DNA of 64,000 nt from NCBI GenBank assembly GCA_032595685.2, contig CP159373.1, forward strand, positions 951,001-1,015,000, read 5' to 3'. Shown here piece by piece: positions 3,896-44,114 of the stretch. Under the pieces are notes generated by a model that was not told the origin of the DNA, made no database searches, and was given only the letters and a program-made list of their open reading frames with translations. Numbering within the stretch: the first letter of the stretch is position 1; every line of letters begins with the position of its first letter. This DNA is from Candidatus Electrothrix aestuarii (lineage in GTDB: Bacteria; Desulfobacterota; Desulfobulbia; Desulfobulbales; Desulfobulbaceae). A program made the translations under genes and the position numbers.

Positions 3896-3923
3896 TTGAC
3901 AAATCCATACAGATAGATATAAA
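3896..3923 (+). promoter_or_regulatory. Sigma-70 type promoter for the tlpA-like gene
   Basis: A perfect TTGACA at 3896-3901 and TATAAA at 3918-3923 are separated by 16 bases, about 70 bases before the tlpA-like start. This lies in the 373-base divergent gap between surA and the tlpA-like gene, which is otherwise AT-rich and empty of genes. Confidence 0.6.
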
Positions 3924-3992
3924 TAATGATATAAAGATAATATCCAGACTGAGCATCAAGCAAAGAAAACATACCATGCAGGAGATATATAC

Positions 3993-21479: not shown

Positions 21480-22574
21480 GTGAAGAAGAACAATACCAAA
21501 GAGACAAAAAAGGTTGGCCGACCCGATGCATCGTTTCCCACGTCTGTGGGGAAAAATATGCTCCCGAATGATTATGCTTCCGTACTGAAAGAACTCAAGG
21601 AGCGTATTCAATCTGAACGCCTGCGCGTCACCTTGGCAGCTAACTCGGCTATGGTTCTTCTCTACTGGGATATAGGAAAAATCATTGTAGAGCGACAGCA
21701 GCAGCAAGGCTGGGGTGCCAAAGTCATTGATCGTCTTTCTTTTGACCTCAAGCACAGCTTTCCGGAAATGAGCGGATTCTCGCCGCGTAACCTCAAGTAC
21801 ATGCGGAAATTTGCCGAGACGTGGCCGGATCAAACAATTGTGCAACGCACCGTTGCACAAATTCCTTGGCGGAGTAACTTAGCTCTGCTTGAAAAGCTGG
21901 ATGATGTGGATACACGCCTGTGGTATGCCCAAAAAACCGTGGAAAACGGGTGGAGCCGAAACATTCTGGTCATGCAGATCGAAAGCCGTTTGCATGAGCG
22001 TCAAGGACAGACTGTAAACAACTTTGCTGCCACTCTTCCGCCGCCTGATTCCGACATGGCGACCCAAATCTTTAAAGATCCTTATCTGTTTGATTTTCTC
22101 GGCACTGCCAACCTCAGAAAAGAACGCGAAGTCGAGCAGGCATTGATGGATCATGTGCAGGAGTTTCTCCTGGAAATGGGGGCCGGATTCGCCTTTGTCG
22201 GTCGTCAGATGCTGCTGGAGGTGGGAGATCAGGATTTTCGCCTTGATCTGCTTTTTTACCACCTCAAGCTTCGCTGTTTTGTTGTGGTGGAATTAAAGGC
22301 TGTACCTTTTGATCCCGGCTTTACCGGCCAACTGAATCTCTACCTGTCCGCAGTTGATGATTTGATGCGGCATCCAGATGATAAGCCGACCATAGGTCTG
22401 CTGCTGTGCAAGAGTAAAAACGAGCTGGTGGTAGAATATGCTCTGCGCGGCCTCAACAAACCTATGGGTGTGGCGCAATGGGAAACGCAGCTTACTGAAA
22501 CCCTGCCTGATAATTTGAAAGACAGTCTGCCGAGTATTGAGGAAATTGAGGCGGAATTAAAAGGTGAAGTGTAG
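21480..22574 (+). CDS. DUF1016 (YhcG-type) PD-(D/E)XK nuclease domain protein
   Basis: A 364-residue protein with the two-part layout of the DUF1016/YhcG family. The N-terminal DUF1016_N helical domain includes LLYWDIGKIIVERQQ and FSPRNLKYMRKFAETWP. The C-terminal PD-(D/E)XK nuclease domain has the catalytic Asp in FRLDLLFYH and the ExK pair in VVVELKAVPFDPGF. Such proteins occur in mobile and defence loci, and related ones degrade DNA at stalled forks or phage DNA. Start is GTG at 21480; the ATG at 21558 is an alternative. A small fragment of a second copy lies at 46132-46186. Confidence 0.85.
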   Translation: MKKNNTKETKKVGRPDASFPTSVGKNMLPNDYASVLKELKERIQSERLRVTLAANSAMVLLYWDIGKIIVERQQQQGWGAKVIDRLSFDLKHSFPEMSGFSPRNLKYMRKFAETWPDQTIVQRTVAQIPWRSNLALLEKLDDVDTRLWYAQKTVENGWSRNILVMQIESRLHERQGQTVNNFAATLPPPDSDMATQIFKDPYLFDFLGTANLRKEREVEQALMDHVQEFLLEMGAGFAFVGRQMLLEVGDQDFRLDLLFYHLKLRCFVVVELKAVPFDPGFTGQLNLYLSAVDDLMRHPDDKPTIGLLLCKSKNELVVEYALRGLNKPMGVAQWETQLTETLPDNLKDSLPSIEEIEAELKGEV

Positions 22575-22595
22575 GGAAACTTGTTAATTAAATAG

Positions 22596-22730
22596 AGAAA
22601 ATTTTTGATCTGTAACTTCCGGCCCAAGGTGACTGAGGTGCTGGTTGATGGTGATCAATTCCGGGTTATCCGAGAGCGAGAAAGCTATGAGGATCTGGTG
22701 CGGGGGGAGGATTTGAGTACGTTGCCCTGA
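22596..22730 (+). pseudogene. C-terminal remnant of an unidentified gene
   Basis: An open frame without a start codon that reads as ordinary protein: CNFRPKVTEVLVDGDQF, then RVIRERESYEDLVRGEDL, ending with TGA at 22728-22730. Codon use is GC-rich like the core genes and unlike the AT-rich restriction genes beyond. It looks like the last ~40 codons of a gene whose body was lost, probably when neighbouring accessory DNA came or went. Between 22731 and 23193 I see no gene, only AT-rich DNA. Confidence 0.5.
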
Positions 22731-23193
22731 GCAAGGGAACGATCACTTGACGGGTTGCTGTTTCTTTCGTTCTGAAGAAACAGTTACCTGTATCCGTATA
22801 AAAGCGGAAGTAAACCGGGAAGTTTTTTTCCATGTTAGCTGCTGGATAGCGTGATAAGAGGAAAAGAGCAGGCGGAAAGTAATAAGTGGAAAGGTTTTCC
22901 CGTTTTTCGTCTCAATATCGGAATAAGTGGAACTTTACGGAATCTATTACTGTCAATAGCATGGAAAGTTTCCACTTATTAATACTGATATGTGCCAAAA
23001 GAATATGGGCTCCAGAGTCTATTAGTTTTATTCTACCAACATGGAAAAAAGATTAAAAATACATCTTAAAGACGGAAAATTGGGGTAATCACTTTAGGTC
23101 TTTGGGAACATGAGTTAAAAGAAAGTCAGTCGTCACAAAGTTACAAAGAAAATTGAGAGAAAAATCAAAACTTTTTCATCCCTTAGAGGCTAA

Positions 23194-23940
23194 ATGAAAA
23201 AATCTACCAAGGAACAACTTACAGCTATATTGCAGGACTGTGTTGATCGGGCAATAGAACGTGTAAAAAAAGACAAAACATATCGTCCTTTTCACGAAGC
23301 TTTATTGACAAAAAAACTGGTTGCTGCTTCTGCCTTTGAAAGATCTTTTTCGACATCTTTTGGGCAAGGTCCAATTGAAGAAATTTCACAAATTCTTGCT
23401 ATAGCCAATGGTTGTGAAAGTTCTCGCCAGAAAGAAACAATGGCAAATGTCAACAAGGGAGCCGTTGATGAAATTGAAAGGATTTTAAGTTCTCTCAGAA
23501 GTGGTGAGAGTGTACCTAATTGGGACAAAGAAATTGCAAGGGTAAAAGCTTTCAATAAAGGTGATTACGTTGTCAGACGTATTATTTCAGATTTATGGAT
23601 AAAGAATAAAAATACAGAAATTTTCATATCAATAAAAACCGTGAAGCCCAATATTGACCAAACAGAGATAGTTAAAAAGGACATGCTACTTTTAAAAGCA
23701 CATAATCCAAAACATGAAACATATTTCGGGCTTTATTATAACCCGGGGGGGCCAAATCGAACTGATTACAACTGGTCAATTCCATCAAAAATTTTCAACA
23801 TGAAGCAAGACAAATACGTTATAATAGGGCAAGAATATTGGGACTTTGTAGGTGGTAATGGAACCTACGAATCATTGTTAAAAATTTTTGAAAAAGTTGG
23901 TAATGAAACCAGGTCACAATTAGAGAAAATAGGTCACTAA
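23194..23940 (+). CDS. Type II restriction endonuclease, TdeIII-like
   Basis: A 248-residue protein next to a C5 cytosine methyltransferase, hence a restriction enzyme by context. The sequence recalls the TdeIII/MjaII family (GGNCC cutters) in the stretch AFERSFSTSFGQGPIEEI. A plausible PD-(D/E)XK variant is the Asp in VRRIISDLWIKN and the Lys in EIFISIKTVKPN, with Ser where Glu/Asp is usual. The gene is AT-rich compared with its surroundings, suggesting recent transfer. It converges on the methyltransferase gene with a four-base overlap. The family name is from memory; restriction function is supported mainly by context. Confidence 0.65.
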   Translation: MKKSTKEQLTAILQDCVDRAIERVKKDKTYRPFHEALLTKKLVAASAFERSFSTSFGQGPIEEISQILAIANGCESSRQKETMANVNKGAVDEIERILSSLRSGESVPNWDKEIARVKAFNKGDYVVRRIISDLWIKNKNTEIFISIKTVKPNIDQTEIVKKDMLLLKAHNPKHETYFGLYYNPGGPNRTDYNWSIPSKIFNMKQDKYVIIGQEYWDFVGGNGTYESLLKIFEKVGNETRSQLEKIGH

Positions 23941-25370
23941 AATTTTTCAAGTGGCAGTGTGCGTGTGTTGCACCGCTTTAAAAATTCTTTTTCCCATTTT
24001 ATTTCATCAGTATTCTTGTACCGAGAATAATTAAAATCTTCGTAAACTTTAATTTCACGATTGTTCATGTAGTCGATTAGCAATTTACCTATTGCCGTGC
24101 CAAGGCTTCTTGGTACGGCATTTCCGATTTGTTTATATTGTTCTATCAAGCTACCTTCAATTTGCCAAGAATCAGGGAATTCTTGAATTTTCTTATATTC
24201 TTCAACACTCAAAGGACGGTCTTCAGTTGGGTGGGCCAAGTCGGTGGCAGGCATTGCTGGATGTGTCACTAAAGTAGGTGAGGGGGCGTCCCAGGACAAA
24301 CGCCGTAAAAAACCTGTTTTGCCACCACCTGCATAATATGATTTCCCGAGAGCTTCTTTCTGCAATTCAGTAGGGAGGTGCTTCCAATATTGGCCAGCTT
24401 TTAATTTTCGGTAATATTTTAATCTTTTTTCAGGGAATTCTAAATGATGGTGTTTATCAATTTTAGCCCCATTCATTGCTTCTTTAAAAGACCGCCATTT
24501 CGGCAAACCAAACAGTTCTTTTTCAGAATTGGTTGGCACAAGATATGGTAATTTCTTACCATCACGAGAACATACGACAACAACCCTTTCTCTTTTTTGT
24601 GGAGTTCCAAAATTAGCTGAGTTATATAAATTAAAATTTACCCCATAACCTGCCTTTCGAAGTTTTTGTAACACATGGAATAAAACGCCGCCTTTTTCTT
24701 TTTCTTCAGGTGTCAGCGGTTTAAAGCCTGTGCCACGCTGATTGTGTGGCCTATGTTTTAGTGGTGCAGATAGAAGACCGCGCACATTTTCAATCACAAT
24801 AAATTTAGGAGCCAACTCAATAGCAACTTCAAGAAACTTTAAAAATACATTTCCTCTTTTGTCATCTAGCCCTTTCCGTTTTCCAGCCGTACTAAATGCT
24901 TGGCAGGGTGGGCCGCCGACAACTAAATCTATATCATCGTTGGGGGCCAACTTTGCAAGCTCTCGAATTTCTTCTGCGGTGTAATTATTTATATCGTCTA
25001 TTAGTGCTATTTGAGGTTTATTTTTAATAATGGTCTTTCTGCAAGCATTATCAATTTCACAACTCAATAGCACTTCAAAGCCTGCTTTTTCAAGACCCAA
25101 GTCTAAGCCCATTGCTCCACTAAAGAAACTAAGTGCAATCGGTTTTGTTTTAGATAATAATTCTTCGTTAGTGTAATATGAGGACTGGTTCTCAGCTATT
25201 CCGCAACTTGAATTGTCATAGTAATTATATATATCGTGCTCATACATAACCCATGAGCCACTAACTTTTTCACTGGGTAGCTTTTTACTCCGACATAAAT
25301 TACGAACTTGCTGAGGTGTGATTTTTAGAAGTTCAGACGCTTTTTTTATATCCACAAAGGTACTTTGCAT
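23937..25370 (-). CDS. DNA (cytosine-5-)-methyltransferase with an N-terminal excisionase-like helix-turn-helix
   Basis: Protective methyltransferase of the adjacent restriction enzyme. After an N-terminal MerR/excisionase-like DNA-binding segment (FVDIKKASELLKITPQQVRN), the C5 motifs appear in order: motif I SFFSGAMGLDLGLEKAGF, motif IV GGPPCQAFSTAGKR with the catalytic Cys, motif VI VIENVRGLLS, motif VIII QKRERVVVV, and motif X GNAVP near the end. I start at 25370, not at 25394, because GGAGGGG lies there at good spacing. It would give 477 residues. The N-terminal segment may let the enzyme repress its own genes. AT-rich. Confidence 0.9.
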   Translation of the reverse strand: MQSTFVDIKKASELLKITPQQVRNLCRSKKLPSEKVSGSWVMYEHDIYNYYDNSSCGIAENQSSYYTNEELLSKTKPIALSFFSGAMGLDLGLEKAGFEVLLSCEIDNACRKTIIKNKPQIALIDDINNYTAEEIRELAKLAPNDDIDLVVGGPPCQAFSTAGKRKGLDDKRGNVFLKFLEVAIELAPKFIVIENVRGLLSAPLKHRPHNQRGTGFKPLTPEEKEKGGVLFHVLQKLRKAGYGVNFNLYNSANFGTPQKRERVVVVCSRDGKKLPYLVPTNSEKELFGLPKWRSFKEAMNGAKIDKHHHLEFPEKRLKYYRKLKAGQYWKHLPTELQKEALGKSYYAGGGKTGFLRRLSWDAPSPTLVTHPAMPATDLAHPTEDRPLSVEEYKKIQEFPDSWQIEGSLIEQYKQIGNAVPRSLGTAIGKLLIDYMNNREIKVYEDFNYSRYKNTDEIKWEKEFLKRCNTRTLPLEKF

Positions 25371-25543
25371 ATTTTCCCCTCCGAAAGTTTTCAAAGTACC
25401 AATATGTTAATCGAAGCTAATTTTAAACTCAAGGTAAAAAATTAAAAAGAGCACAAGTAATAATTAATTAGGTAATTAATTAGGGGACGTAGCCCGTTTT
25501 AGTTTTTTCTGCTTCGGTCGTCGGTAGCCTGCGGCGAAGTATC

Positions 25544-30362: not shown

Positions 30363-31835
30363 ATGGAAAAAAATCAGCTAAAGACTGTCACCGAGATTTT
30401 TTCCGAAGCATGGGATCTGTATAAAAGCAAGGCCGTTTCCATCGTGCTTGTTGCCATCATCTCTCTCCTTGTGAGCGCCCTTCTCCTCGTCGGAGGAGCA
30501 ACAGCAGCCTTTTTCGCCCTAGGTGGACAACCTTTCTTTGCAGGAGATCTTCGCGAACTCCTCATGAACCCAAAAGTCCTTGGAGCAGGCGTTCTCTTGC
30601 TCCTTTCGAGCATTCTCCTGGCTTCCTGGAGTCAAGCTGCTGTTCTTACGGCCACGGTTCGTCAGGACAGCAGCATCCCTGGTGTGCTCATAAAAAGCTG
30701 GAAATATGCCTTCCCCCTTCTCTGGATCACCAGCCTTTATGTCGGGATTATTACGGCAGGAATCACCCTCTTTGTTCTCCCGGGCCTGATACTCGCCTTA
30801 TCACTGTCCTTTTGTTTCTTCAGTATGGCAGATGAAAATCGGACAGGCATTGATGCTCTGCTTGCCAGCCGATTCTATGTGCGGGGACATTGGTGGAATA
30901 CCTTGTTCAAACTCCTGCTGGTCTGGATACCTGCGTTGTTCATCAACCTCATTCCTTTCCCCTTCGTCCCTCAAATCCTCACCTTGTTTTTCACACCCTT
31001 CCTGATGCTCTACACAGCAAGGGTGTACTCTGATCTCAAAGAATGCGCAGAGGAGAGCGAGCCCTCCCTTGGTTTAGGCTGGCTTTGGGTCCTTTTCGGT
31101 GTATTCGGATTTCTTCTTCCACTGCTTACGGTTATCGGTTCCATCGTGGCCCTTGGCCCCCAGCTCCCCGAGATCATCAAGCAGGTGCAAACAAACGCCA
31201 ATCAAGCTCTTGGCAGAGAGCTTTTCCCTCAGATTCAAGATGATTCCCGAAAAAATCTTGATAAAAAACCAGGCAAACCTCCGCTCGTCCGGCAACTCCC
31301 TTCTATAAATGGCTTTCTGGTCTGGCGAGACCCCATCGGAGACACCCACAATCCTCTTTTGGATATCAAAGAAGTTTCCGCAAAAGGAGAACAGGATAAC
31401 CTCATCCTTGCTATTACCATGATTCGGCCTTTTTCCGATTATTTCCTCTCTGTAAAACCAGGTAACTTTGACTCATTGGTCAGCTTTTACCTGGATACCG
31501 ACACCAATCGAGCAACAGGAGGTACGCCTTTTAAGCAAGACCAGAGAAGAAACGGATATGATCTGGATGTGCAGGTACAACTTGTCGTACAGCAAGGGAA
31601 GACTACATCTGGAAGGGCGGAAGCAAGCCTGTATCAGCTTTCTACCAATGAAAGAAGGTCTATTGGAACGTTGGATAAAAATGCTGTCACTGTATCCGGG
31701 GATACAGTGACAATTCGTGTACCTTATACGCAGTTGAAGGCCGCTTCCGGGGATATCATCAGAGTCTGCTATCAGGAAGCGGCACAGGAAAAGGGACGCG
31801 GCTTAGCCAAGGATAAATTGGTGCCGCTCAAATAA
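30363..31835 (+). CDS. Polytopic membrane protein with an extracytoplasmic C-terminal domain
   Basis: About 490 residues. The N-terminal ~270 residues carry six or so hydrophobic helices in the style of the membrane domain of glycerophosphoryl diester phosphodiesterases (LYVGIITAGITLFVLPGLIL). After the last helix (~GVFGFLLPLLTVIGSIVAL) comes a ~220-residue soluble domain with DTDTNRATGG and a mixed beta pattern, apparently without catalytic residues. I start at the ATG at 30363 instead of the GTG at 30345 because an AAGGA site lies before it. The function is unknown. Confidence 0.75.
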   Translation: MEKNQLKTVTEIFSEAWDLYKSKAVSIVLVAIISLLVSALLLVGGATAAFFALGGQPFFAGDLRELLMNPKVLGAGVLLLLSSILLASWSQAAVLTATVRQDSSIPGVLIKSWKYAFPLLWITSLYVGIITAGITLFVLPGLILALSLSFCFFSMADENRTGIDALLASRFYVRGHWWNTLFKLLLVWIPALFINLIPFPFVPQILTLFFTPFLMLYTARVYSDLKECAEESEPSLGLGWLWVLFGVFGFLLPLLTVIGSIVALGPQLPEIIKQVQTNANQALGRELFPQIQDDSRKNLDKKPGKPPLVRQLPSINGFLVWRDPIGDTHNPLLDIKEVSAKGEQDNLILAITMIRPFSDYFLSVKPGNFDSLVSFYLDTDTNRATGGTPFKQDQRRNGYDLDVQVQLVVQQGKTTSGRAEASLYQLSTNERRSIGTLDKNAVTVSGDTVTIRVPYTQLKAASGDIIRVCYQEAAQEKGRGLAKDKLVPLK

Positions 31836-31845
31836 AGGGCTCTTC

Positions 31846-32244
31846 TTACTTGTGGGTAACCGGATAACTGTTCATAAGCCACTCAGTCCAACCGCCGCTC
31901 AAGGCGTAAACATGCGTAAAACCCTTTTCCATGAGCTTCTGGGCCAATCGACCACTTGTCCCTAAGCCCTCACAAGCACAATAAAGTACCAGCGGGGTGT
32001 TTTTATGAAAGTTCTCCGCCCAAACATCTACTTTATCGCCTGGCAGGCGGATTGCACCAGGAATTTTATTATCACTGGCATCCCAATGATTATCACTGCG
32101 CACATCCAAAATCGTGTACTCATAGGAACCAAGCTTGGACTTCAGCTCTTCTTTGCTTATCGTTTGAATATCAGCGGAAAGTGCTTGGCTTGCACCACCT
32201 ATCCCCAGTAATACGGCAACGACGAGCAGCAGAATGTTTTTCAT
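31846..32244 (-). CDS. Exported single-domain rhodanese
   Basis: A 132-residue periplasmic sulfurtransferase-like protein. Residues 1-24 are a signal peptide (ending LSA). The rhodanese fold has TILDVRSDNHWD, KIPGAIRLPGD and the active-site loop LYCACEGLGTSGR, with Cys89 as the sulfur-carrying residue and a second Cys91 two positions on, then VYALSGGWTEW. Such proteins move sulfane sulfur. The start is set at 32244 where AAAGGAG precedes the ATG; the longer frame from 32280 has no ribosome site. A damaged or recoded paralogue lies immediately upstream on the same strand (32355-32666). Confidence 0.88.
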   Translation of the reverse strand: MKNILLLVVAVLLGIGGASQALSADIQTISKEELKSKLGSYEYTILDVRSDNHWDASDNKIPGAIRLPGDKVDVWAENFHKNTPLVLYCACEGLGTSGRLAQKLMEKGFTHVYALSGGWTEWLMNSYPVTHK

Positions 32245-32354
32245 GACATTTTCTCCTTTATAAAATAGTTGCTGATCCATTTACTTGTTGCTTACAGACT
32301 GTCTTGACTCATCAACAGGGCATGGGATGCTTCAACTACTGCAACCAGAAGAGC

Positions 32355-32666
32355 CTATTTCTTTTCCACAGGAAAATCACCAGCCCTCCATTGCCTCCAG
32401 CCCCCTTTCAGGACATAGACATCAGTAAAATCTCTTGCTACGAATTTGCGTGCCAAACTGGCACTGCCTCTTTCGTTCACTCATGAACAATAGAGAATCA
32501 TTGTATTATCCTTAGGTAAGGATGACGACCATTCATCAAAATTATCCCACGTCACCTGGATTGCGCCGGGGATTTTAAACTTACTACTGCTCCGGCCTCT
32601 TATTAAGCATCCAAGGGCCGTCCCGATGCAACATACTGATTTTATCTTCAATAAATACACATTCAC
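32355..32666 (-). pseudogene. Second rhodanese with in-frame TGA at the active-site loop (pseudogene or selenoprotein)
   Basis: One continuous frame, broken only by TGA at 32483-32481, reads KFKIPGAIQVTWDNFDEW, ILYCS, TGA, VNERGSASLARKFVARDF, then VYVLKGGWRQW and a final TAG. It aligns without gaps to the neighbouring rhodanese, and the TGA falls exactly on that protein's second active-site cysteine (YCAC against YCS-TGA). A hairpin with arms GTGCCA and TGGCAC and loop GTT begins 16 bases after the TGA (loop at 22 bases), which fits the published bacterial SECIS pattern. Against function: the N-terminal third is poorly rhodanese-like and no signal peptide is seen. Call: pseudogene more likely, selenoprotein possible. 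Confidence 0.6.
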
Positions 32667-32950
32667 TCTCTATCTACTAGCACTGTACAGTTTTCTACAT
32701 TGCATGTACAGTTTTTTTTACATTAAATTTTTAATCTTTTGTAAATAATTGCAACAGCGTGGCACACATCTCTATAACCAAGGCCAGGAAAGACCTCTCC
32801 TCCTGGCCTCGTTAGGGCAACGACCCAATATGGGTTCGATATGAATTTACTTTCTCGCAGAGCATAAAAAGGAAGAGATCGAAGTAAAACAAGAAAAGGA
32901 ACACTGAGCAAGGAAGCGATAATGACAAGGAGGGGGTAAAAAAAAGACAA

Positions 32951-33010
32951 AAAAACCCGCAAACCAATGAAGGCTGCGGGCTTAACGTCAACGTCAAAGG
33001 ACGAGATGGA
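32951..33010. repeat. Direct repeat, left copy of the tRNA-Leu terminator region
   Basis: Almost identical to 36541-36594, in the same orientation: the terminator stem (CCCGCAAACC...GGCTGCGGG), then TTAACGTCA and AAGGACGAGATGGA. This copy has an extra tandem ACGTCA. On the minus strand it still looks like a terminator with a T-run, but no gene ends here. The two copies bracket a 3.6-kb accessory block. Confidence 0.8.
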
Positions 33011-33133
33011 CTCGTAACCCTCTATTTTCCCTCTGTCAGTTCCTCATACAGGGCAAAAAGAAACTGCATCCTGTTCAGTTCGTTGGCAAAGGCTTGCCGC
33101 TTCTTGTGACGGCAGCTGAGCCTTAAAAAAACA

Positions 33134-33310
33134 GGCCCCGCCTTTAAAAGATGATAACTGTCCTTTTTATTCCAGACCCTCGGCATGAAAAGGTGACGAC
33201 TGTTTTTTTTAATTCCAAGCCCCCGCCTTTAAAAGAAGATGACTGTCCTTTTTATTCCAGGCCCTCGGTATTAAAAGATGATGACCGTTCTTTTAAATAT
33301 GGGCCTCCGG
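33134..33310. repeat. Degenerate ~42-bp tandem repeat
   Basis: Four to five units, each starting near CCCYCGSC and containing a form of AAAAGATGATGACTGTCCTT followed by a T-rich part and TTCCAG. Units start near 33136, 33176, 33218, 33261 and 33303. Alternate units (first and third; second and fourth) resemble each other most. A plus-strand frame across it shows a 14-residue periodicity, but units one and two are out of phase with it, so I do not call a gene. No spacers of CRISPR type are present. Confidence 0.65.
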
Positions 33311-33430
33311 TTTCTTTTCCTGACAGCCGGGTTGTACAAGGTAAGCCCCTGCTGTTTTCCTGTCGGGACATGGCGGATAATCCCCTGAAGGCTGTTTTTT
33401 CTACTGAACAACCTCAGCGTTCAGAATAGC

Positions 33431-33478
33431 TTGGCAGAGGATTATCCGGGTGCCGGGCACTGAGATTAAGGGAGGGGG
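33431..33478. repeat. Dispersed island repeat, copy 1
   Basis: CTTGGCAGAGGATTATCCGG and onward; related to the copies at 34960 and 35546. The common core is CAGNGGATYATCCGGG, a second CCGGGC, then TGRGATTRAGGG. It lies about 55 bases beyond the 3' end of the cassette formed by the TIR gene and its partner (minus strand). The inverted arms are less perfect in this copy. Confidence 0.7.
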
Positions 33479-33534
33479 GGGAATTTGACATAGCATCACA
33501 TTATGCGACGAAATATATAAGAAACGTAATGGTA

Positions 33535-33918
33535 TTAATGTGAAAATTTCAAAAAAGTTATATCACCCCAATCTTTCAAGGATTTGAAATTTTCTGAATC
33601 AGAATAATGGAATTTTAACCTTTTTATATCTTTTTTACTCAATGCCTTCTTCATGCTATGGAAATATGTTGCGCCAAAACCAATCACCTTGTCATGGTCA
33701 TGTAAAATTTGTTCTAACACTTTATAAATATTTTCTTCTGTATCTGCTCCCTTCACAAGAAGCAACCATAAAATTTTTGATATACCTATAGCTTTTTCCT
33801 TTTGAGAAGGGGTTATACATGCCTTTACTAAAGGAAATGAATACTTGTCAAACAACTCATTTATTTTTCTATCCTTTAAATATACTTTTTGGTGCCCAGA
33901 TTTTTTAGACTTGCTCAT
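33535..33918 (-). CDS. Hypothetical partner gene of the TIR protein
   Basis: A 127-residue basic, soluble, mostly helical protein that I do not recognise. It starts with a Lys/Ser-rich segment (MSKSKKSGHQKVYLKD) and contains a hydrophobic helix pattern in ISKILWLLLVKGADTEENI. No catalytic motif is visible. It begins 23 bases after the TIR gene stop on the same strand, with the same low GC content, so the two are probably one operon. It could be a regulator, inhibitor or sensor of the TIR protein; that is inference from position only. Confidence 0.65.
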   Translation of the reverse strand: MSKSKKSGHQKVYLKDRKINELFDKYSFPLVKACITPSQKEKAIGISKILWLLLVKGADTEENIYKVLEQILHDHDKVIGFGATYFHSMKKALSKKDIKRLKFHYSDSENFKSLKDWGDITFLKFSH

Positions 33919-33941
33919 TATAAGTACTCAAAATATTTTTT

Positions 33942-34955
33942 TTAATTATATAGTTCAGCGGCAAAACGTTTAAGCAATGGAGAAACTCCTTGTATAACCA
34001 TTCCACCCAACGTCCTTGTATAGCTGATCAAATTGTTATTGGCCAATTTCTGGAGAACATAATGTCGATATATTATATTGATATCGCCAAAATCAAGCTG
34101 CCCTTCTTTGGTGTTTACGAGTTCGCAAACAATAGTTTTCTCTATTTCTTCAATCTCAGGAACGCGTTCATTGATATAATAACTTACCCCATAACTGGTA
34201 AGATCAACGCTACAACGAAAACTTACAGGGCCAGGTATCCTTATGAGCTGCTTATGCGCCAATAATAATAACGATTCATTAAACGACTCTTTATCAATTT
34301 CGTACTTCATTGTACTGCAAAAAACACTATATGCAGAAATCTGGAATTCCTCATTCTTTTCTAAAGCTTTCTCACATATAGCATTAAATATTATGGAGTC
34401 TGTTTTTCCTAAAGAACTAAACGATATTATATCATTTGAGACATAATTTGGCGGAGGACCTAACGGCGGCTTATTAGTTTGACCAAAAATTGCCATGACA
34501 ATCTTTTCAAATTCATTCTGATATTCTTTTAATTCATTAATCTTAACCCATACCGTACTTTTTAATGGGGCTGGAATGTTACAATCATCAATTACTATTG
34601 GAATTAATCTTGCACCTTCTTCTATTTTTTTTACAACAGCTAAATCCAGCTCCTCTTTAACCCACTTCTTCTGGACACTGTTTTTTGACAGAACTATTAT
34701 AAATGCCTCAGCATTTTGGATACCTTCACAAAATATTTTCCTTACTAAACTATCACCAGGCATCATCTCCCATTGATCTACCCAGGCATCAACACCGCGA
34801 CCACGCAATTTTATTGCAAATTCAGTAACAAAACGCTCTTTATCATCCCAGGAATGGCTGATAAATACTTTATAGGTGAAGTCATCTGGAACTCCCTGAA
34901 TAACATAGTAATTATTGAAAACAAATTTATTAGTCGGTATCACAGGCCGTGTCAA
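33942..34955 (-). CDS. TIR-domain protein with a C-terminal winged-helix-like region
   Basis: About 338 residues. The N-terminal TIR domain (~27-160) opens YKVFISHSWDDKERFV and has the probable catalytic Glu of NADase TIRs in KKWVKEELDLAV, with FIIVLSKNSV before it. Bacterial TIR proteins of this type commonly deplete NAD+ or make cyclic ADP-ribose signals in anti-phage defence. The C-terminal ~150 residues look helical with a winged-helix feel (NIIYRHYVLQKLANNNLI) and may sense the trigger. The apparent start is TTG at 34955 next to AAGG; no ATG is available upstream of the domain. AT-rich, island-borne. It is not an obvious Thoeris pair, as no ThsA-like gene is present. Confidence 0.85.
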   Translation of the reverse strand: MTRPVIPTNKFVFNNYYVIQGVPDDFTYKVFISHSWDDKERFVTEFAIKLRGRGVDAWVDQWEMMPGDSLVRKIFCEGIQNAEAFIIVLSKNSVQKKWVKEELDLAVVKKIEEGARLIPIVIDDCNIPAPLKSTVWVKINELKEYQNEFEKIVMAIFGQTNKPPLGPPPNYVSNDIISFSSLGKTDSIIFNAICEKALEKNEEFQISAYSVFCSTMKYEIDKESFNESLLLLAHKQLIRIPGPVSFRCSVDLTSYGVSYYINERVPEIEEIEKTIVCELVNTKEGQLDFGDINIIYRHYVLQKLANNNLISYTRTLGGMVIQGVSPLLKRFAAELYN

Positions 34956-34959
34956 GCAC

Positions 34960-35014
34960 CTTGTCAGCGGATCATCCGGGCACCGGGCCGCTGGGATTGA
35001 GGGGGTGAAGAAAA
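34960..35014. repeat. Dispersed island repeat, copy 2
   Basis: Arms CAGCGG and CCGCTG form a perfect 6-bp stem around a loop ATCATCCGGGCACCGGG. It sits directly before the TIR start and 124 bases after the stop of the next upstream gene (35139-35495, minus strand). Confidence 0.8.
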
Positions 35015-35138
35015 GAGATGAAGGCTGGTTTTAACGGTATCTGCACAGGCGAAAAGATAGGCTGATAACCTTTCTTATGCGACTGAAACCCCCGGAATAA
35101 GCTGCTGACCCAGAGGCCGGTCATTCTTGAACCTGTTA

Positions 35139-35495
35139 TTATCCTTCGTCATCAATGACAATAGGTGTTCCCACGGTGTCCTCTACTACGGTATGACATT
35201 CGACAACAAACCACTCGTTGAACAGGTTCAACGTCCTCTTCTCTGGCCAGAGTTTCCTGTCAGCGTACCAGGATGTCAACTCTGCCTCAAAGAGGGTTTC
35301 ATAATTACGTTTTATCCAACGCTCAACATCCGTTGTATCCTCTGCATCTTCATCCGACACAAGATAGACTATCCCGTCATTATGTACGTTTTCTACCGTT
35401 ACACCTTGGCCTTCAGCAGAAGGATCAGCTTCATTTATCCATTCAACCGCTTTTTGCTTATATCTCAGAATGATTGCTGCTCTGTTAATAGTCAT
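35139..35495 (-). CDS. Hypothetical acidic protein
   Basis: A 118-residue soluble, acidic protein of unknown family. It begins MTINRAAIILRYKQKAVEWI, continues with an Asp/Glu-rich middle (DEDAEDTTDVERW) and a Trp-containing C-terminal half (LNLFNEWFVVECHTVVED). No export signal or catalytic motif is seen. GC content is closer to the core genome than that of the TIR gene. It is flanked on both sides by copies of the same hairpin repeat, so it appears to be a single-gene cassette of the island. Confidence 0.65.
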   Translation of the reverse strand: MTINRAAIILRYKQKAVEWINEADPSAEGQGVTVENVHNDGIVYLVSDEDAEDTTDVERWIKRNYETLFEAELTSWYADRKLWPEKRTLNLFNEWFVVECHTVVEDTVGTPIVIDDEG

Positions 35496-35545
35496 TTTTT
35501 ATAATACCTGTTTTTGTACATGTTTTATGCAAAGCTGTTGCGCAT

Positions 35546-35600
35546 CTTGTCAGCGGGTCATCCGGGCATCGGGTCGTTGAAGCTGAGGGAGTGGAAAAAG
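35546..35600. repeat. Dispersed island repeat, copy 3
   Basis: Same family as copies 1 and 2. Here the arms are CAGCGG and TCGTTG, which still pair with two G-U wobbles, so the stem is kept while the sequence drifts. That suggests selection for structure. It lies between the acidic protein gene and the META-domain gene. Confidence 0.75.
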
Positions 35601-35629
35601 GGAAGGAGGGGTAATGAGGTTGTACGGAC

Positions 35630-35698
35630 GCGGCTCAAGTCATTGATGCGGGCTTAGTGCGCCTTCATCAGGGCACTTCCTTAACAGACTTGAGCCGC
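35630..35698. other. Long inverted repeat, nested hairpin
   Basis: GCGGCTCAAGTC (35630-35641) and GACTTGAGCCGC (35687-35698) are perfectly complementary over 12 bases, with a 45-base interior that itself can pair TGATG with CATCA. It is not followed by a T-run. It lies between repeat copy 3 and the META-domain gene. A small RNA or a DNA recombination structure are both possible. Confidence 0.65.
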
Positions 35699-35784
35699 TG
35701 GCAGAGCAGGGGGGGGCTTTTCAATCGCATATCCAGCCAACGCGGGATAGTTGCTGCGGAATAAAAAAGAAGAAGGGCGAGCTC

Positions 35785-36405
35785 TTATTTTCTGATAAGA
35801 ACAACAACCCATGTACCGTAGTCGTCTTTCAATATCAATTGATCGCCTTTTGTCTCATATCCTACAGCAGCCCGGAAGGCTTCCAAGAGAAGGTCATCCT
35901 GCCTCATGCGTCTTTCTTCGCATCTCATATATGTCGAGCTACCTGCTTTCATAGAAATTCGATCTCCAGAGACAGTATAATCTCCCATATAATTATTACA
36001 GAAAGATCGCCCCCAAAATCTACCGTCTGCCCCAAATTGTATGTCGAGTTCTTTGTAAAAGTTTATATCGACAAGTCCTCGACCGTCGTTATAACTGGTC
36101 ACCTCCCAGGAGGTTCCAGATAACTTAATCTTTTCAGCAGAGCCAAAAGAATTCACCCTAAAATTTGCCAGTCCGCCTTTATCAGAGCAAAAATTACACG
36201 CATCGTTGTAAAGAACCTGTGCTGCCTGTTCCTCAGTGCAATGATCCATCCTTGTTTCTATTGAATACATCGAAAAGGAGTCGTAGCAGGTGAATTCACC
36301 TCTTGCTCCTATAGCGTAGGCAGCAGTTGCGAAAGATAGAGACAATGCAACGAGACAACAGCTTGTAAGAATTTCTTTTGTTTTCTTCAGAGCAAGGTTC
36401 GACAT
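35785..36405 (-). CDS. Exported META-domain (HslJ-like) protein
   Basis: A 206-residue protein with a signal peptide (~1-32, ending AYA). A cysteine-containing segment (FTCYDSF, DHCTEEQAA, NDACNFCSDKGG) precedes a C-terminal META domain (~95-205), recognised from KLSGTSWEVTSYNDGRG, DIQFGADGRFWGRSFCNNYMG split over ~122-142, and the closing GDQLILKDDYGTWVVVL. META domains occur in HslJ and in stress-related envelope proteins; the biochemical role is unknown. It is the tRNA-proximal gene of the island. The start is at 36405, with GGGAGGCCC just upstream. Confidence 0.8.
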   Translation of the reverse strand: MSNLALKKTKEILTSCCLVALSLSFATAAYAIGARGEFTCYDSFSMYSIETRMDHCTEEQAAQVLYNDACNFCSDKGGLANFRVNSFGSAEKIKLSGTSWEVTSYNDGRGLVDINFYKELDIQFGADGRFWGRSFCNNYMGDYTVSGDRISMKAGSSTYMRCEERRMRQDDLLLEAFRAAVGYETKGDQLILKDDYGTWVVVLIRK

Positions 36406-36534
36406 GACAGGGCCTCCCGAATAGGTAGATGCAAAATAGGTGGGTACATCTTTTTAGTAGACAATACCCGCTGTTGTACCCGCTTTATGCGGTGGATGTC
36501 AATGGAAAATAATGGAGAAAAACGAAAGAGAAGG

Positions 36535-36570
36535 CATAAAAAAAACCCGCTAACCAATGAAGGTTGCGGG
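36535..36570 (-). terminator. Terminator of tRNA-Leu
   Basis: On the minus strand GCCCGCAACC pairs with GGTTAGCGGG across a six-base loop and is followed by a run of T. It lies about 35 bases after the tRNA 3' end. The same hairpin occurs at 32951-32980. Confidence 0.85.
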
Positions 36571-36594
36571 CTTAACGTCAAAGGACGAGATGGA
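36541..36594. repeat. Direct repeat, right copy (tRNA-Leu terminator region)
   Basis: Right-hand copy of the repeat described at 32951-33010; about 52 of 54 positions agree when the six-base insertion of the left copy is set aside. It lies between the META gene and tRNA-Leu. Confidence 0.8.
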
Positions 36595-36603
36595 ACTAAA
36601 ATA

Positions 36604-36690
36604 TGGTGCCGAAGGGGAGAGTCGAACTCCCACGAGCGTACGCCCACTAGACCCTGAACCTAGCGCGTCTACCAATTCCGCCACTTCGGC
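36604..36690 (-). tRNA. tRNA-Leu (CAG anticodon)
   Basis: The minus strand folds as a class II tRNA: acceptor GCCGAAG pairs with CTTCGGC, the discriminator is A and CCA is encoded. The D arm contains GGTAGACGC, the anticodon stem CTAGG/TCTAG holds loop TTCAGGG with anticodon CAG, a long variable arm (GTGGGCGTACGCTCGT region) follows, and the T arm contains GTTCGACTC. The long variable arm is expected for leucine tRNA. Confidence 0.97.
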
Positions 36691-36701
36691 ACGGCGAGAA
36701 G

Positions 36702-36730
36702 AATATGCCTCATTTTGAATTCTCTGTCAA
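36702..36730 (-). promoter_or_regulatory. tRNA-Leu promoter
   Basis: On the minus strand TTGACA (36730-36725) and CATATT (36707-36702) are spaced by 17 bases, placing the transcription start a few bases before the tRNA 5' end. Confidence 0.65.
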
Positions 36731-36918
36731 TATATTTTTATCCGCTCTTTTAAAAAAATGCATATACCATCTCAAAGCCCCTATGAACTGTTTGCGGGTT
36801 TGGCCTGCTTAGAGTACATATTCTGTTTTATCCAAAAAAATATGCTTGTTTTCCGAAACGGTCGTTCGAATCGGAAAAAATACATGACCCGCATGATAAA
36901 GCAAGGCAATAAAGATAT

Positions 36919-37899
36919 ATGCAGCTGTATAGAAGTCTAGACGAAATCAAGAGTCCTTTTGAACGCCCGGTAGTCACCATCGGCAATTTTGACGGGGTAC
37001 ACCTGGGACACCAGCTTCTTTTTCATGAGGTGGCAATTCGAGCCAAACGGAGCGGCGGCACCTCCGTAGCCATCACCTTTGACCCGCATCCACTTAAAGT
37101 GTTGCGCCCCGATGGTATCAGACTGATCTCCTCGACCCGGCAAAAAATCGAGCTCATTCGCATGGCGGGAATTGACGCTCTGCTCATTCTCCCCTTTGAT
37201 CAGAAATTCGCAGAAACCACGGCCAGTGACTTTGTCAATACCGTGCTCTGCAACACTATAAGGGTTCATGAATTAGTGGTGGGCTATGATTATGCCTTTG
37301 GCAAGGGCAGAGAGGGGAATATCGACTTCCTTCGCAGCCAAGGCGAAAAAAAAGGCTTTCCGGTCACCATAGTTGAGGCCCATTATGAGGAAGATATGCT
37401 GGTCTCCAGCACCAAAATCCGCGAGTTGGTCATGGAAGGGCGAATGGACGATGTGCGTAACTTACTCGGTCGCTGCTACCACATTCACGGCGAGGTGCAA
37501 CGGGGCAAGCAACGGGGCGGCTCTGAGATAGGCTTTCCCACCGCAAACCTGAAACTTTCAGAAGAGGATCTCTGTCCGAAAAAAGGCGTCTATGTAACCC
37601 AAGTCATCTATGATGACAAGATGTACGGCAGCGTCACCAATATAGGCTATAATCCCACCTTTGCAGAAAATGAACTGGTGGCTGAAACACATATCTTTGA
37701 TTTCAACAAAGATATCTATGGCCACCCTATCCACCTTAACGTGCTCCGTTATTTACGTGGGGAAGTGAAGTTCAACTCCATACAGGAGCTCTCCGCACAA
37801 ATCAAGCAAGATGTCGCTATAGCGAAGCAGGTACTTGCTGATGCTGCAAAGGAGCGTGTACTTTCCTGCGAGGAACGTTTTAACACTCTAGCGGTCTGA
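36919..37899 (+). CDS. ribF: Bifunctional riboflavin kinase / FAD synthetase RibF
   Basis: Converts riboflavin to FMN and FMN to FAD. The N-terminal FAD-synthetase (nucleotidyltransferase) domain has GNFDGVHLGHQ (~23-33) and the later SSTKIRELV motif; the C-terminal riboflavin-kinase barrel has GEVQRGKQRGGSEIGFPTAN with the typical PTAN signature. At 326 residues the length is normal. The gene stands alone on the plus strand between tRNA-Leu and pckG. No FMN riboswitch is visible in the 228 bases upstream. The stop codon lies inside a perfect hairpin. Confidence 0.95.
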   Translation: MQLYRSLDEIKSPFERPVVTIGNFDGVHLGHQLLFHEVAIRAKRSGGTSVAITFDPHPLKVLRPDGIRLISSTRQKIELIRMAGIDALLILPFDQKFAETTASDFVNTVLCNTIRVHELVVGYDYAFGKGREGNIDFLRSQGEKKGFPVTIVEAHYEEDMLVSSTKIRELVMEGRMDDVRNLLGRCYHIHGEVQRGKQRGGSEIGFPTANLKLSEEDLCPKKGVYVTQVIYDDKMYGSVTNIGYNPTFAENELVAETHIFDFNKDIYGHPIHLNVLRYLRGEVKFNSIQELSAQIKQDVAIAKQVLADAAKERVLSCEERFNTLAV

Positions 37900-37923
37900 T
37901 CTGCTTCGTATATGAAGCAGATC
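37898..37923 (+). terminator. Hairpin at the ribF stop codon
   Basis: GATCTGCTTC and GAAGCAGATC form a perfect 10-bp stem with a six-base loop and include the ribF TGA. No T-run follows, so it may protect the mRNA end rather than terminate by itself. Confidence 0.55.
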
Positions 37924-37937
37924 TTCAGGGGACAGGA

Positions 37938-37961
37938 GTTCCCAAGCAAGAGCTTGGGAAC
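37938..37961. repeat. Perfect inverted repeat in the ribF-pckG gap
   Basis: GTTCCCAAGC and GCTTGGGAAC are perfect 10-bp arms around AAGA. Elements of this kind are common as dispersed intergenic palindromes in bacteria; only one copy was noticed in this window. Confidence 0.6.
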
Positions 37962-38068
37962 CAGTACAAAGGGGATGCGGAATGTGGGTTATACTCTTAT
38001 AAGGCGGAGGATTCTGCTCTGTAGCACAGGAAAACTCCACATATACAGCTCTCCAGCTATGCTATCAG

Positions 38069-41441: not shown

Positions 41442-44114
41442 ATGAGTTCTCCTTATGAAAAGAAAATAGGCAACAGCACGTTAAGCTGGCAACAATTAGA
41501 CGGTATTGAAAAAACTCACGAGGAAGTTTTCGAATCTTGGGAGCAATCTCTTTTTTTATTTAAAGAGGAAAATATAGCCTGTGAAACTGAAGGGTTGAGA
41601 CCTCCTCAGCTTGGTGGAATTTTTGCCGCTTTAGGATATGAAAAATCTGATGATAAAGGCGCTGCAAGCATTGTAATGCCAACAGGAACAGGTAAAACAG
41701 AAACGATTTTATCTATTGTTGTTGCGGGTAAGTTTAAAAAAACATTGGTGGTAGTCCCATCTGACCCATTACGAAAACAAACTCAAAAAAAATTTATCCA
41801 ACTTGGGCTATTGCGCCAATTCGGATTAATCACAACTGAAACAGCCAATCCTGTTGTAGCCACCATTAAACATGGTGTAAATGACGATTTTGAGCTCCTG
41901 CAGCTTTTGCAATCTAATGTCATTGTCGCTTCTGCATCGGCACTAGCAAAATTTCCCAAAGAGTATCTATTAAAATTAACTAAAGAATGTTCCCACCTAA
42001 TTGTTGATGAAGCGCATCACGTCACCGCTGTAACATGGGCAAGAGTCAAATCCTGTTTTCAAAACAAACCTGTTTTTCAATTTACAGCGACTCCCTTTAG
42101 GTCAGACTGTTCACGTATCGAAGGGAAAATTATATTTAATTACTCATTAAAAGCAGCTCAGCATGATGGGTATTTTAAGCCTATTGAATTTCATCCTGTC
42201 AGGGAGTTCGTTGAAGAAAAAAGTGACCAAGCAATTGCGAACAAAGCTATCGAATTACTGAAGGCTGATTTGGATGCGGGCTTAAATCATATTGTGATGG
42301 CAAGAGCTCGCACCATAAAGAGAGCAGAAAAAATTTTTGAGTTGTACGCGGTAGAGAAAGAACTTAATCCCGTTCTGCTACATAATAACGTCAAGAAAAA
42401 AAATAATATTCTTGAGAATATTAAAAGATGCAAGCATAGAATAATTATATGTGTTGATATGCTTGGCGAAGGATTTGACCTTCCACAATTAAAAATTTCC
42501 GCGATACATGATCCTCATAAGAGTATTAATATTATGCTTCAGTTTACGGGAAGATTTACCCGTAAAGCTGATAAGGTTGGCACTGCTAAATTCATAGCTA
42601 ACATTGCTAATCCAAATGTAAATGAAAGTCTTGAAGAGCTTTATAGGGAAGACTCTGACTGGAATATTCTTATAAGTGATATTAGCGCAGGAAAGATAAA
42701 AGACGAAAAGGATTATCAAGAATTTCGTTCCAAATTTTCAGCTCCTAGTAAATTACTTGATCTGGGATTGACTCCAAGCATAAGCACCACCATCTACAAA
42801 ATGAAAGCGTCCAAATGGACGCCAGCAAATTTTCAAAACTTTAGCAATAAATATTTTCAATTAGTTGATTCGACAATCAATGATGAACAAGACACGCTAA
42901 TTTTTAGTGTAAAATCATACATTCCTGTTGGCTGGGCAAGTTCGAAGGAACTTTTTGATGAATTTTGGGGATTATATATTGCATACTATGACAAAGAATT
43001 AAGTCTTTTGTTTATTCATTCATCTGATAAAGATGGTTTAGTAAAGAAACTGGTAAAATTACTTGCTGGTAACGCCATTCAAATTAAAGGTGAACATGTA
43101 TTTAGAGCGTTAGCCGGTTTAAAGAGGTTAAAGTTACAAAATGTAGGGCTTAACAAGAATAAACAAGGGCTTCGCTATTCTATGCACACGGGAACAGAAA
43201 TAAATGAACAAATTCCAGATATAGAAGCAAAAAGAGCAATAAAATCTAATATCTTTGGGAAAGGTTATGAGGATGGTGGGCTTGTCAGCGTAGGGTGTTC
43301 ACACAAAGGAAAAGTGTGGGCTATGGATAGTGACTCTGTAGACAAATGGGTATCTTGGTGTAAAATTATTGGCAGAAAAATTTTGGATGATAGTATAGAT
43401 ACAAACCAAGTGCTGAAAACGGCGATGCAAACTGAGGAATTAAAAGAATTTCCAGACATTCCAGTCTTGCTAGTTGAATGGCCAGTTGAAATACTTAGAA
43501 AAAACGAATCAACGATTACTATTTCCTCAATAAAGTGGAAAGAGAGCCTTGTCAATTGCGAACTAGCAGTATCTAATACGCAGAATGCAGATACTAAGAT
43601 GTTTGCGTTTGATTTGGTTACTGATTATGGAAAAAGTAGAATCCTCGCTTCGTTAAACTCAGCGGGAGAAATGATCTTTAGATCAGAAGATAATTTAAGA
43701 ATAAATTTTGGAGAGCAACAGCAAGAACTCTCTGAGTATTTCAACGAGTACCCACCAACATTTTTTTTGTCAGATACATCCATCATTGATGGTGGCTTAC
43801 GCTATTATCCTACCGAAGAATATGCCTACCTATACGATAAGAATAACATTGATGACTGGGACTGGTCAAACATAGATATTTCAAAGGAATCTCAAACTGA
43901 ACATAAACTTACCAACTCCATTCAGTATCACACTATCCAGCAAATAAAAAACGATTATGATGTTGTTTTTGATGACGACGGTAGCGGAGAAATAGCAGAT
44001 ATTGTTTCTATAAAAAACATTGAAGATAAAGAGCTGATCATTGACCTTTTCCATTGCAAATACTGCCCTAAAAACAAAAAAAGGGGCCGCTACACCTGGT
44101 GCAAGGGTGGATGA
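41442..44114 (+). CDS. SF2 DEAD/DEAH helicase, main part of a frameshifted gene
   Basis: Superfamily 2 helicase/ATPase of 890 residues before the frame is lost. Motif I is PTGTGKTE (~80-87), motif II VDEAHHVT (~188), motif III FTATPFRSD, and motif VI sits in LQFTGRFTRKADKVG after GEGFDLPQLK. The large C-terminal part is an accessory region typical of stand-alone phage-defence or restriction-type helicases. The last residues in this frame (PKNKKRGRYTWCKGG) do not fit; the expected continuation is in the +1 frame. The gene is AT-rich, has AAAAAGG before the ATG, and has no nuclease or methylase partner nearby. Frameshift at the A7 tract 44076-44082. Confidence 0.85.
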   Translation: MSSPYEKKIGNSTLSWQQLDGIEKTHEEVFESWEQSLFLFKEENIACETEGLRPPQLGGIFAALGYEKSDDKGAASIVMPTGTGKTETILSIVVAGKFKKTLVVVPSDPLRKQTQKKFIQLGLLRQFGLITTETANPVVATIKHGVNDDFELLQLLQSNVIVASASALAKFPKEYLLKLTKECSHLIVDEAHHVTAVTWARVKSCFQNKPVFQFTATPFRSDCSRIEGKIIFNYSLKAAQHDGYFKPIEFHPVREFVEEKSDQAIANKAIELLKADLDAGLNHIVMARARTIKRAEKIFELYAVEKELNPVLLHNNVKKKNNILENIKRCKHRIIICVDMLGEGFDLPQLKISAIHDPHKSINIMLQFTGRFTRKADKVGTAKFIANIANPNVNESLEELYREDSDWNILISDISAGKIKDEKDYQEFRSKFSAPSKLLDLGLTPSISTTIYKMKASKWTPANFQNFSNKYFQLVDSTINDEQDTLIFSVKSYIPVGWASSKELFDEFWGLYIAYYDKELSLLFIHSSDKDGLVKKLVKLLAGNAIQIKGEHVFRALAGLKRLKLQNVGLNKNKQGLRYSMHTGTEINEQIPDIEAKRAIKSNIFGKGYEDGGLVSVGCSHKGKVWAMDSDSVDKWVSWCKIIGRKILDDSIDTNQVLKTAMQTEELKEFPDIPVLLVEWPVEILRKNESTITISSIKWKESLVNCELAVSNTQNADTKMFAFDLVTDYGKSRILASLNSAGEMIFRSEDNLRINFGEQQQELSEYFNEYPPTFFLSDTSIIDGGLRYYPTEEYAYLYDKNNIDDWDWSNIDISKESQTEHKLTNSIQYHTIQQIKNDYDVVFDDDGSGEIADIVSIKNIEDKELIIDLFHCKYCPKNKKRGRYTWCKGG

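What the first reader, a model, noticed from the sequence alone, without database searches (positions are those of the whole stretch)
33535..34955. TIR protein plus unknown partner as a candidate defence pair
An AT-rich two-gene operon in an island: a TIR domain with a plausible NADase glutamate, fused to an unfamiliar helical/winged-helix region, and a small basic partner I cannot assign. It does not match Thoeris (no ThsA) or a TIR-Argonaute pair (no Ago). It may be an undescribed NAD-depleting module.
Basis: inference. Interest (0 to 1): 0.55.

Follow-up and report, generated by a model that had tools for sequence, protein, structure and literature searches.

The report
TIR–winged-helix immune gene, orphan neighbour
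The sequence holds a bacterial immune-type enzyme gene (a TIR domain joined to two winged-helix units) of a widespread but apparently unnamed family that often sits beside known anti-phage systems; the small gene next to it was found nowhere else searched, so the two do not form a recognisable conserved pair.

Summary
Two AT-rich genes lie head to tail on the minus strand: a 337-codon TIR frame (33942-34955) and a basic 127-codon frame (33535-33918), 23 bp apart. They sit in a cargo hotspot; the nearest relative (96-97% identical flanks) carries a PIN/MazE-like gene pair there instead.

The TIR protein belongs to a family of about 315 residues: TIR plus tandem winged helices. I collected 49 relatives from many phyla. 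The catalytic-type WxxxE glutamate is present in 50 of 50. Relatives lie beside ThsB-type Thoeris TIRs (9 of 49 loci) or HmaC (7 of 49), so a role in NAD-based anti-phage defence is likely.

The 'pair' is not supported. The small partner had no convincing relative in 881 genome look-ups (some genomes repeated), plasmids, phages, viral contigs, or beside any of the 49 relatives.

Unexpected: all 49 relatives have an in-frame start 3-9 codons before the TIR core. Here the nearest is 24 codons before, and a Shine-Dalgarno/ATG lies in another frame. The copy may be damaged, start upstream, or carry an assembly error.

Verdict: a divergent, possibly impaired member of an unnamed TIR-winged-helix defence family, plus an orphan gene.

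The parts
33942..34955 (-). TIR–winged-helix protein P0002, 337 codons as called from TTG; open throughout
34482..34874 (-). TIR core (residues 28-158); W98 codon 34662-34664 and catalytic-type E102 codon 34650-34652
   Evidence: TIR_2 30-153; W98 and E102 50 of 50; VIA-align range 26-160
34164..34406 (-). first winged-helix-like unit (about residues 184-264)
   Evidence: AF2 secondary structure; weak wHTH matches in some family members
33948..34154 (-). second winged-helix unit (about residues 268-336), MarR/AdcR-like
   Evidence: AF2; profile against PDB, zinc-dependent MarR-type regulators, E 1.3e-4
34883..34885 (-). ATG with a Shine-Dalgarno-like AGGGAG, at the place where relatives start, but in a different frame from the TIR body (its own frame ends after 24 codons)
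33535..33918 (-). small basic orphan ORF P0001, 127 codons, predicted helical with low confidence
33384..35053 (.). segment replaced by different genes in the nearest relative (cargo hotspot)
34956..35024 (.). copy of a repeat abutting the called TTG start; second copy 35542-35610 (75% identical)
32949..33010 (.). direct repeat of the sequence downstream of tRNA-Leu (second copy 36539-36594)

Best explanation
P0002 belongs to a widespread family of TIR enzymes, in most loci without a fixed partner: an N-terminal TIR NADase-type domain followed by two winged-helix units. Most likely the winged-helix part keeps the protein inactive, or recognises an infection cue (a phage protein or nucleic acid) directly or through another defence protein. 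On triggering, the TIR domains associate and E102 cleaves NAD+, either depleting it or making an ADP-ribose signal, and the infected cell stops. Shown here: domain make-up, invariant active-site residues, family spread, and linkage of relatives to Thoeris and Hma genes. Inferred: catalysis, trigger and cell arrest. The neighbouring P0001 is most likely lineage-specific cargo of the same hotspot rather than an obligate partner (inferred from its absence elsewhere). This copy is divergent, and its start region is displaced out of frame relative to the relatives, so it may be weakly expressed or inactive.
For: TIR_2 E 1.6e-28. Best PDB sequence matches are the bacterial TIR domains PdTIR, AbTir and BtTir. 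Fold matches to the TIRs AbTir, PdTIR and SPARTA. W98 and E102 in 50 of 50. Tandem winged-helix C-terminus. 49 relatives: 43 of the 59 genome loci plus 6 of 6 viral loci. ThsB-type gene in 9 of 49 loci, ThsA macro in 3, HmaC in 7. Restriction, PD-T7 or PDC-type genes beside L008, L009, L022, L037, L051 and L066. Of 8 strong ThsB places (at least 55 bits) in 42 such genomes, 6 coincide with the genes in the fetched loci; the other two are not in the stretches held. Precedent: SpbK, a TIR NADase necessary and sufficient for protection and switched on by a phage portal protein (PMC11984713 abstract; PMC12847820 passages).
Against: No biochemical or phage data. The window copy lies in a tree group (13 rows, support 91/86) without any Thoeris- or Hma-linked member, on a long branch. 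The start problem may mean this copy is not made. Only 16 of 49 loci carry ThsB or HmaC, and one close 15-row clade supplies 12 of those 16, so the links are not independent events. Of 19 neighbouring genes that I picked for PADLOC, 8 matched nothing.
Confidence: 0.62

Rival explanations
1. P0002 and P0001 form a real but lineage-specific two-gene module: P0001 is a fast-evolving inhibitor (antitoxin-like), activator or sensor of the TIR protein.
For: Same strand, 23 bp gap, similarly low GC and both inside the exchanged segment. The frame is longer than chance. Other family members have varied close neighbours, e.g. a 128-188 aa unassigned protein in 4 of 49 loci.
Against: No convincing P0001 homologue found. 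The same-family relative L011/L004 has no such frame in the 428 bp of downstream contig held.
Confidence: 0.22
2. The locus is a decaying remnant: the TIR gene lost its start by a frame offset and neither gene is functional now.
For: 49 of 49 relatives have an in-frame start 3-9 codons before the core; here the nearest is 24 codons before, and the Shine-Dalgarno/ATG is out of frame. N-terminal residues 1-21 have pLDDT under 50. Long branch.
Against: The rest of the frame is open, with the active-site and most family-conserved residues kept. TTG 34955 or GTG 34943 could start it. An assembly indel would look the same.
Confidence: 0.3
3. P0002 is a Thoeris-type TIR (ThsB) that makes an ADP-ribose messenger for an effector encoded elsewhere in the genome.
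For: ThsB_TIR 24.4 bits, cut-off 21.2. Some relatives next to ThsA/ThsB.
Against: TIR_2 is by far the better model (100 bits). No ThsA_Macro in the genome (0 of 1). ThcB4 type III model only 15.2 bits against 220. The SIR2-SLOG ThsA was not searched for.
Confidence: 0.15
4. P0002 is a member of the PADLOC bSEFIR family.
For: Best PADLOC match, E 2e-24, one stretch over residues 27-294.
Against: Pfam SEFIR only 29.5 bits against TIR_2 100; the bSEFIR profile is 412 positions long and only 38-285 aligned.
Confidence: 0.12

Closest known systems
SpbK (Bacillus subtilis TIR NADase; PMC11984713, PMC12847820)
   Same: A TIR NADase that alone is enough for defence; TIR plus another region
   Different: SpbK carries its TIR at the C-terminus (a section heading of PMC11984713; residues 111-266 in a passage of PMC12847820); here the TIR is N-terminal and the other part is tandem winged helix
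Thoeris (ThsA/ThsB)
   Same: TIR with catalytic-type Glu; relatives stand beside ThsB in 9 of 49 loci and ThsA macro in 3
   Different: No ThsB- or ThsA-type gene among the neighbours scanned; no ThsA_Macro in the genome
Retron-TIR (type XII)
   Same: TIR domain matches NF042941 in 50 of 50 members
   Different: Only the TIR part of the model is matched; 68.5 bits against a cut-off of 600
SPARTA TIR-APAZ
   Same: N-terminal TIR; fold matches mostly over the TIR only
   Different: No Argonaute gene beside it; C-terminal part matches winged helix
bSEFIR (PADLOC)
   Same: TIR/SEFIR domain N-terminal, aligned to residue 294
   Different: Shorter than the profile; Pfam TIR_2 preferred
Hma (HmaC, DUF499)
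   Same: Five relatives overlap the end of a 942-1021 aa HmaC-like gene by 4 bp; 7 of 49 loci have an HmaC match in all
   Different: No HmaC match among the window neighbours scanned

Membership tests
TIR NADases | TIR fold | tested here: met
   TIR_2 E 1.6e-28; fold matches
TIR NADases | catalytic glutamate (WxxxE) | tested here: met
   W98/E102, 50 of 50
TIR NADases | NAD+ cleavage | not testable with these tools
   needs an enzyme assay
TIR–winged-helix family (defined here) | alignable over TIR and C-terminus | tested here: met
   about residues 28-330 aligned to most of the 49 relatives
TIR–winged-helix family (defined here) | in-frame start codon 3-9 codons before the core | tested here: not met
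   49 of 49 relatives have it, the window copy does not
Thoeris | ThsB-type TIR beside the gene | tested here: not met
   Own-genome PF08937 places: the gene itself (26.5 bits) and one in a 1493-aa frame 0.78 Mb away
Thoeris | ThsA effector in the genome | tested here: inconclusive
   ThsA_Macro 0 of 1; SIR2-SLOG ThsA not searched
Thoeris type III ThcB4 | curated NCBIfam cut-off 220 bits | tested here: not met
   15.2 bits
Retron-TIR | curated NCBIfam cut-off 600 bits (RT plus TIR) | tested here: not met
   68.5 bits, TIR part only
SPARTA | Argonaute gene in the operon | tested here: not met
   adjacent genes are P0001 (no family), rhodanese, an unassigned ORF and META; none is Argonaute
bSEFIR | PADLOC model over the whole protein | tested here: inconclusive
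   E 2e-24, profile 38-285 of 412, no curated cut-off given
   no partner in flanks of the 49 relatives nor a convincing one in other collections

The most novel reading that the evidence does not exclude
The TIR–tandem winged-helix proteins are an undescribed portable immune enzyme that works alone in many genomes and is also plugged into Thoeris and Hma operons as an extra output or sensor, with the winged-helix pair reading a nucleic-acid or phage-protein cue; in this lineage a newly recruited small basic protein controls it.
Probability: 0.2. Interest if true: 0.55.

Novelty: new variant of a known kind. Interest (0 to 1): 0.36.

Why it matters
If right, one unnamed TIR family links three kinds of locus (without a known partner, Thoeris-linked, Hma-linked), which makes it a good subject for asking how a winged-helix module switches on a TIR NADase. 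It also corrects the pair hypothesis and flags that this copy may be impaired, so tests should use an intact relative.

Tried and rejected
Partner homologues. I searched P0001 in 96 relatives, 345 genomes of the phylum, 42 genomes that carry a TIR relative (L010's genome was not held) and 398 genomes of another phylum: 881 look-ups, with some genomes repeated. Also plasmids, phages and viral contigs (close relatives only). Weak hits that I take as chance: L002 and L096, which by eye are phosphogluconate dehydrogenases sharing one stretch of about 70 residues (neither was scanned against a family library, but P0001's weak NCBIfam hits of E 0.01 and 0.017 are to that family); L097 and L098, which contain stops; L099, 28% over 66 residues inside a 670-aa frame; an 11-residue match in L017, E 0.27.

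P0001 structure: AF2 from one sequence gave mean pLDDT 49, too poor to search, and I did not search it. The second and last structure job went there, so the C-terminus of P0002 could not be folded alone; its winged-helix assignment rests. The rows of the fold search cover mainly the TIR half.

C-terminal part against plasmids: no match. Relative L008 against plasmids at E 1e-30: one record, Rhodoferax antarcticus, with no Thoeris-named gene in the annotated stretch. Strict P0002 search in the phylum (E 1e-25) found only itself among 395 genomes. Order-wide search with the C-terminus: 3 of 242 genomes, one of them its own. Viral scan with P0002 alone: no relative.

ThsB places in G623 and G641 were not found in the stretches held as L009 and L028, so those loci are not counted as Thoeris-linked. 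Promoter-like sites were fewer than in shuffles, so ignored. Rfam: only the tRNA in 32000-37000.

Rows dropped: 16 of 65 loci (L048, L050, L052-L065) because under 200 residues of P0002 aligned or E was above 1e-30; L004 because it duplicates L011; L031, L032 and L033 (short or at a contig end) left out of alignment A3, so 47 of 50 rows; L031 and L033 left out of the tree, so 48 of 50 rows. Neighbours for the library scans were picked by me, not exhaustive.

Literature: listings only; passages of PMC12578639, PMC12847820, PMC10853773 and PMC13142454; abstract and headings of PMC11984713. In what I saw of these, nothing described a TIR plus tandem winged-helix defence protein; most subscription papers are not held.

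Full report
The observation. GC is 0.352 and 0.297, lower than the four neighbouring frames measured (0.40-0.46). P0001 is longer than expected by chance: 0.00075 of 4000 Markov samples of the region gave a frame of 127 aa or more.

The site. In the nearest relative (G007), window 31501-33383 and 35444-38000 match at 97% and 35054-35453 at 96%, but 33384-35053 is absent. Another 1.9 kb takes its place, with a PIN-domain gene, a MazE-like antitoxin and a 231-aa frame of no Pfam family. Two other members of the genus (L091, L093) lack about 3 kb here (32765 to 35775); in L094 the adjacent META region is missing too. A direct repeat of the sequence after tRNA-Leu (36604-36690) brackets the segment at 32949-33010 and 36539-36594. 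None of the four proteins between the repeats that I scanned is an integrase, so I call it a cargo hotspot, not a proven integrative element. The genome shares a family with a Desulfobulbaceae bacterium (G013:C268 and L011 are contigs of the same length holding the same gene). That it may be a cable bacterium is my recall only.

The TIR protein. TIR_2 E 1.6e-28. The nearest solved sequences are bacterial TIR domains such as PdTIR and AbTir. One genome scan gave 59 related loci and one viral scan 6. 49 of these 65 align over at least 200 residues; they are 249-404 aa long as called, mostly 311-337. They come from Pseudomonadota, Thermodesulfobacteriota, Cloacimonadota, Cyanobacteriota, Planctomycetota, Bacillota, Ignavibacteriota, Chloroflexota and others. 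With P0002, W98 and E102 are invariant in 50 of 50. AlphaFold2 with 50 rows (mean pLDDT 85.8, pTM 0.53) shows a TIR followed by two units that I read as winged helices; residues 1-21 are under pLDDT 50. A profile of 47 C-termini finds zinc-dependent MarR-type regulators (E 1.3e-4) over the second unit. In Pfam, 12 of 47 members match TrmB and 9 of 47 HTH_34 at E 0.1 or better, but the window protein itself matches none.

The company of relatives. ThsB-type TIR genes lie in 9 of 49 loci (L007, L013, L014, L026, L027, L049, L067, L070, L071), with a ThsA macro gene in three (L014, L026, L067). HmaC matches lie in 7 of 49 (L034, L035, L037, L038, L039, L041, L043): 942-1021 aa with a 4-bp overlap in five, a short piece in L037, and cut by the locus edge and not adjacent in L043 (L035 was the one scanned against PADLOC). 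In the 42 genomes held, 8 places match ThsB at 55 bits or more; 6 of them are the genes in the fetched loci and the other two are not in the stretches held. At about 9 kb per genome of several Mb this is far above chance; I did not run a formal test. Other neighbours: type ISP or IIG restriction enzymes (L009, L008), a cytosine methylase (L066), and PD-T7-3, PD-T7-4 and PDC-S01 matches (L037, L022, L051). Against over-reading: a tree of 48 rows puts 12 of the 16 linked loci in one close 15-row clade, and P0002 in a separate 13-row group (support 91/86) with no ThsB or HmaC neighbour counted, on a long branch. Of 19 neighbouring genes picked for PADLOC, 8 had no match.

The partner. P0001 has no Pfam or PADLOC family at E 0.1 and only weak NCBIfam and PHROGs hits. 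None of the TIR-relative loci encodes a similar protein (phmmer of frames of at least 50 aa, E up to 10, tblastn, one 11-residue match at E 0.27). Whole-genome searches gave only weak hits that I take as chance. All P0001 searches used one sequence, so distant homologues could be missed; itself warns that an empty answer without a positive control shows nothing. The single-sequence model (pLDDT 49) suggests helices only.

The start. In 49 of 49 relatives the nearest in-frame start codon (45 ATG, 2 TTG, 2 GTG) lies 3-9 codons before the conserved KVF of the TIR core; these are candidate starts, not mapped ones. In P0002 the nearest in-frame starts are GTG 34943 and TTG 34955, 24 and 28 codons before it, and TTG 34955 abuts a repeat. 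An ATG at 34885 with AGGGAG in front sits where relatives start, but its frame differs from the TIR body and ends after 24 codons. So this copy is either started upstream, damaged, or misassembled.

How it likely works. By analogy with SpbK, where a TIR NADase is necessary and sufficient and is switched on by a phage portal protein (PMC11984713, abstract; PMC12847820, passages), I propose that the winged-helix pair senses or is docked by an infection cue and the TIR domains assemble and cleave NAD+. In loci with ThsB, P0002-like proteins could act as a second TIR, as ThsB1 and ThsB2 do together in staphylococcal Thoeris (PMC12578639, passages); this is inference.

Known or new. The protein is a TIR of known chemistry in an architecture that none of the libraries scanned names as such: NCBIfam matches fall far below their cut-offs for P0002, PADLOC's best is bSEFIR, and Pfam sees only the TIR/SEFIR part. 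I found no paper describing it in the listings of the open library searched. I rate it a new variant of a known kind, of modest interest, with the two-gene pair claim not supported.

Noticed in passing
L090:2224-2825 (G007, same hotspot): Nearest relative has a PIN-domain gene, a MazE-like antitoxin and (3376-4071) a 231-aa unassigned frame in place of the TIR pair.
   Followed up: partly
L034, L035, L038, L039, L041: TIR–winged-helix gene overlaps the end of an HmaC-like (DUF499) gene by 4 bp, suggesting an Hma operon with a TIR output gene.
   Followed up: partly
L027:3426-3992, L070:1855-2385, L071:1050-1580, L068:42-428: Unassigned 128-188 aa protein upstream of the TIR–winged-helix gene, with a ThsB-type gene in three of the four; L068, L070 and L071 also have a gene nearby that clusters with a phage lysozyme.
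   Followed up: no
L007:3444-3962: 8xMP octameric membrane protein gene directly upstream of the TIR–winged-helix gene in a locus with a ThsB-type gene.
   Followed up: no
L005:1480-1911 (G006, same genus): A 143-aa frame weakly matches only the winged-helix part of P0002 (23% identity, E 5e-4); no TIR was called with it.
   Followed up: no
window 32949-33010 and 36539-36594: Direct repeat of the sequence downstream of tRNA-Leu brackets the hotspot.
   Followed up: partly
window 21480-25394: YhcG-type PDDEXK nuclease gene, then a TdeIII-type restriction endonuclease and a cytosine methylase.
   Followed up: no
window 41442-44114: 890-aa helicase (ResIII/DEAD) with matches to PbeA and type IV restriction models over its helicase part, in a low-GC stretch.
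   Followed up: no
window 32481-32666: Short frame resembling part of the rhodanese gene at 31846-32280 (seen by eye); an equivalent frame is present in G007.
   Followed up: no
own genome G000, contig 1: 730562, 1570379, 1769089: Three further TIR_2 places in the genome besides the window gene, one in a 1493-aa frame.
   Followed up: no
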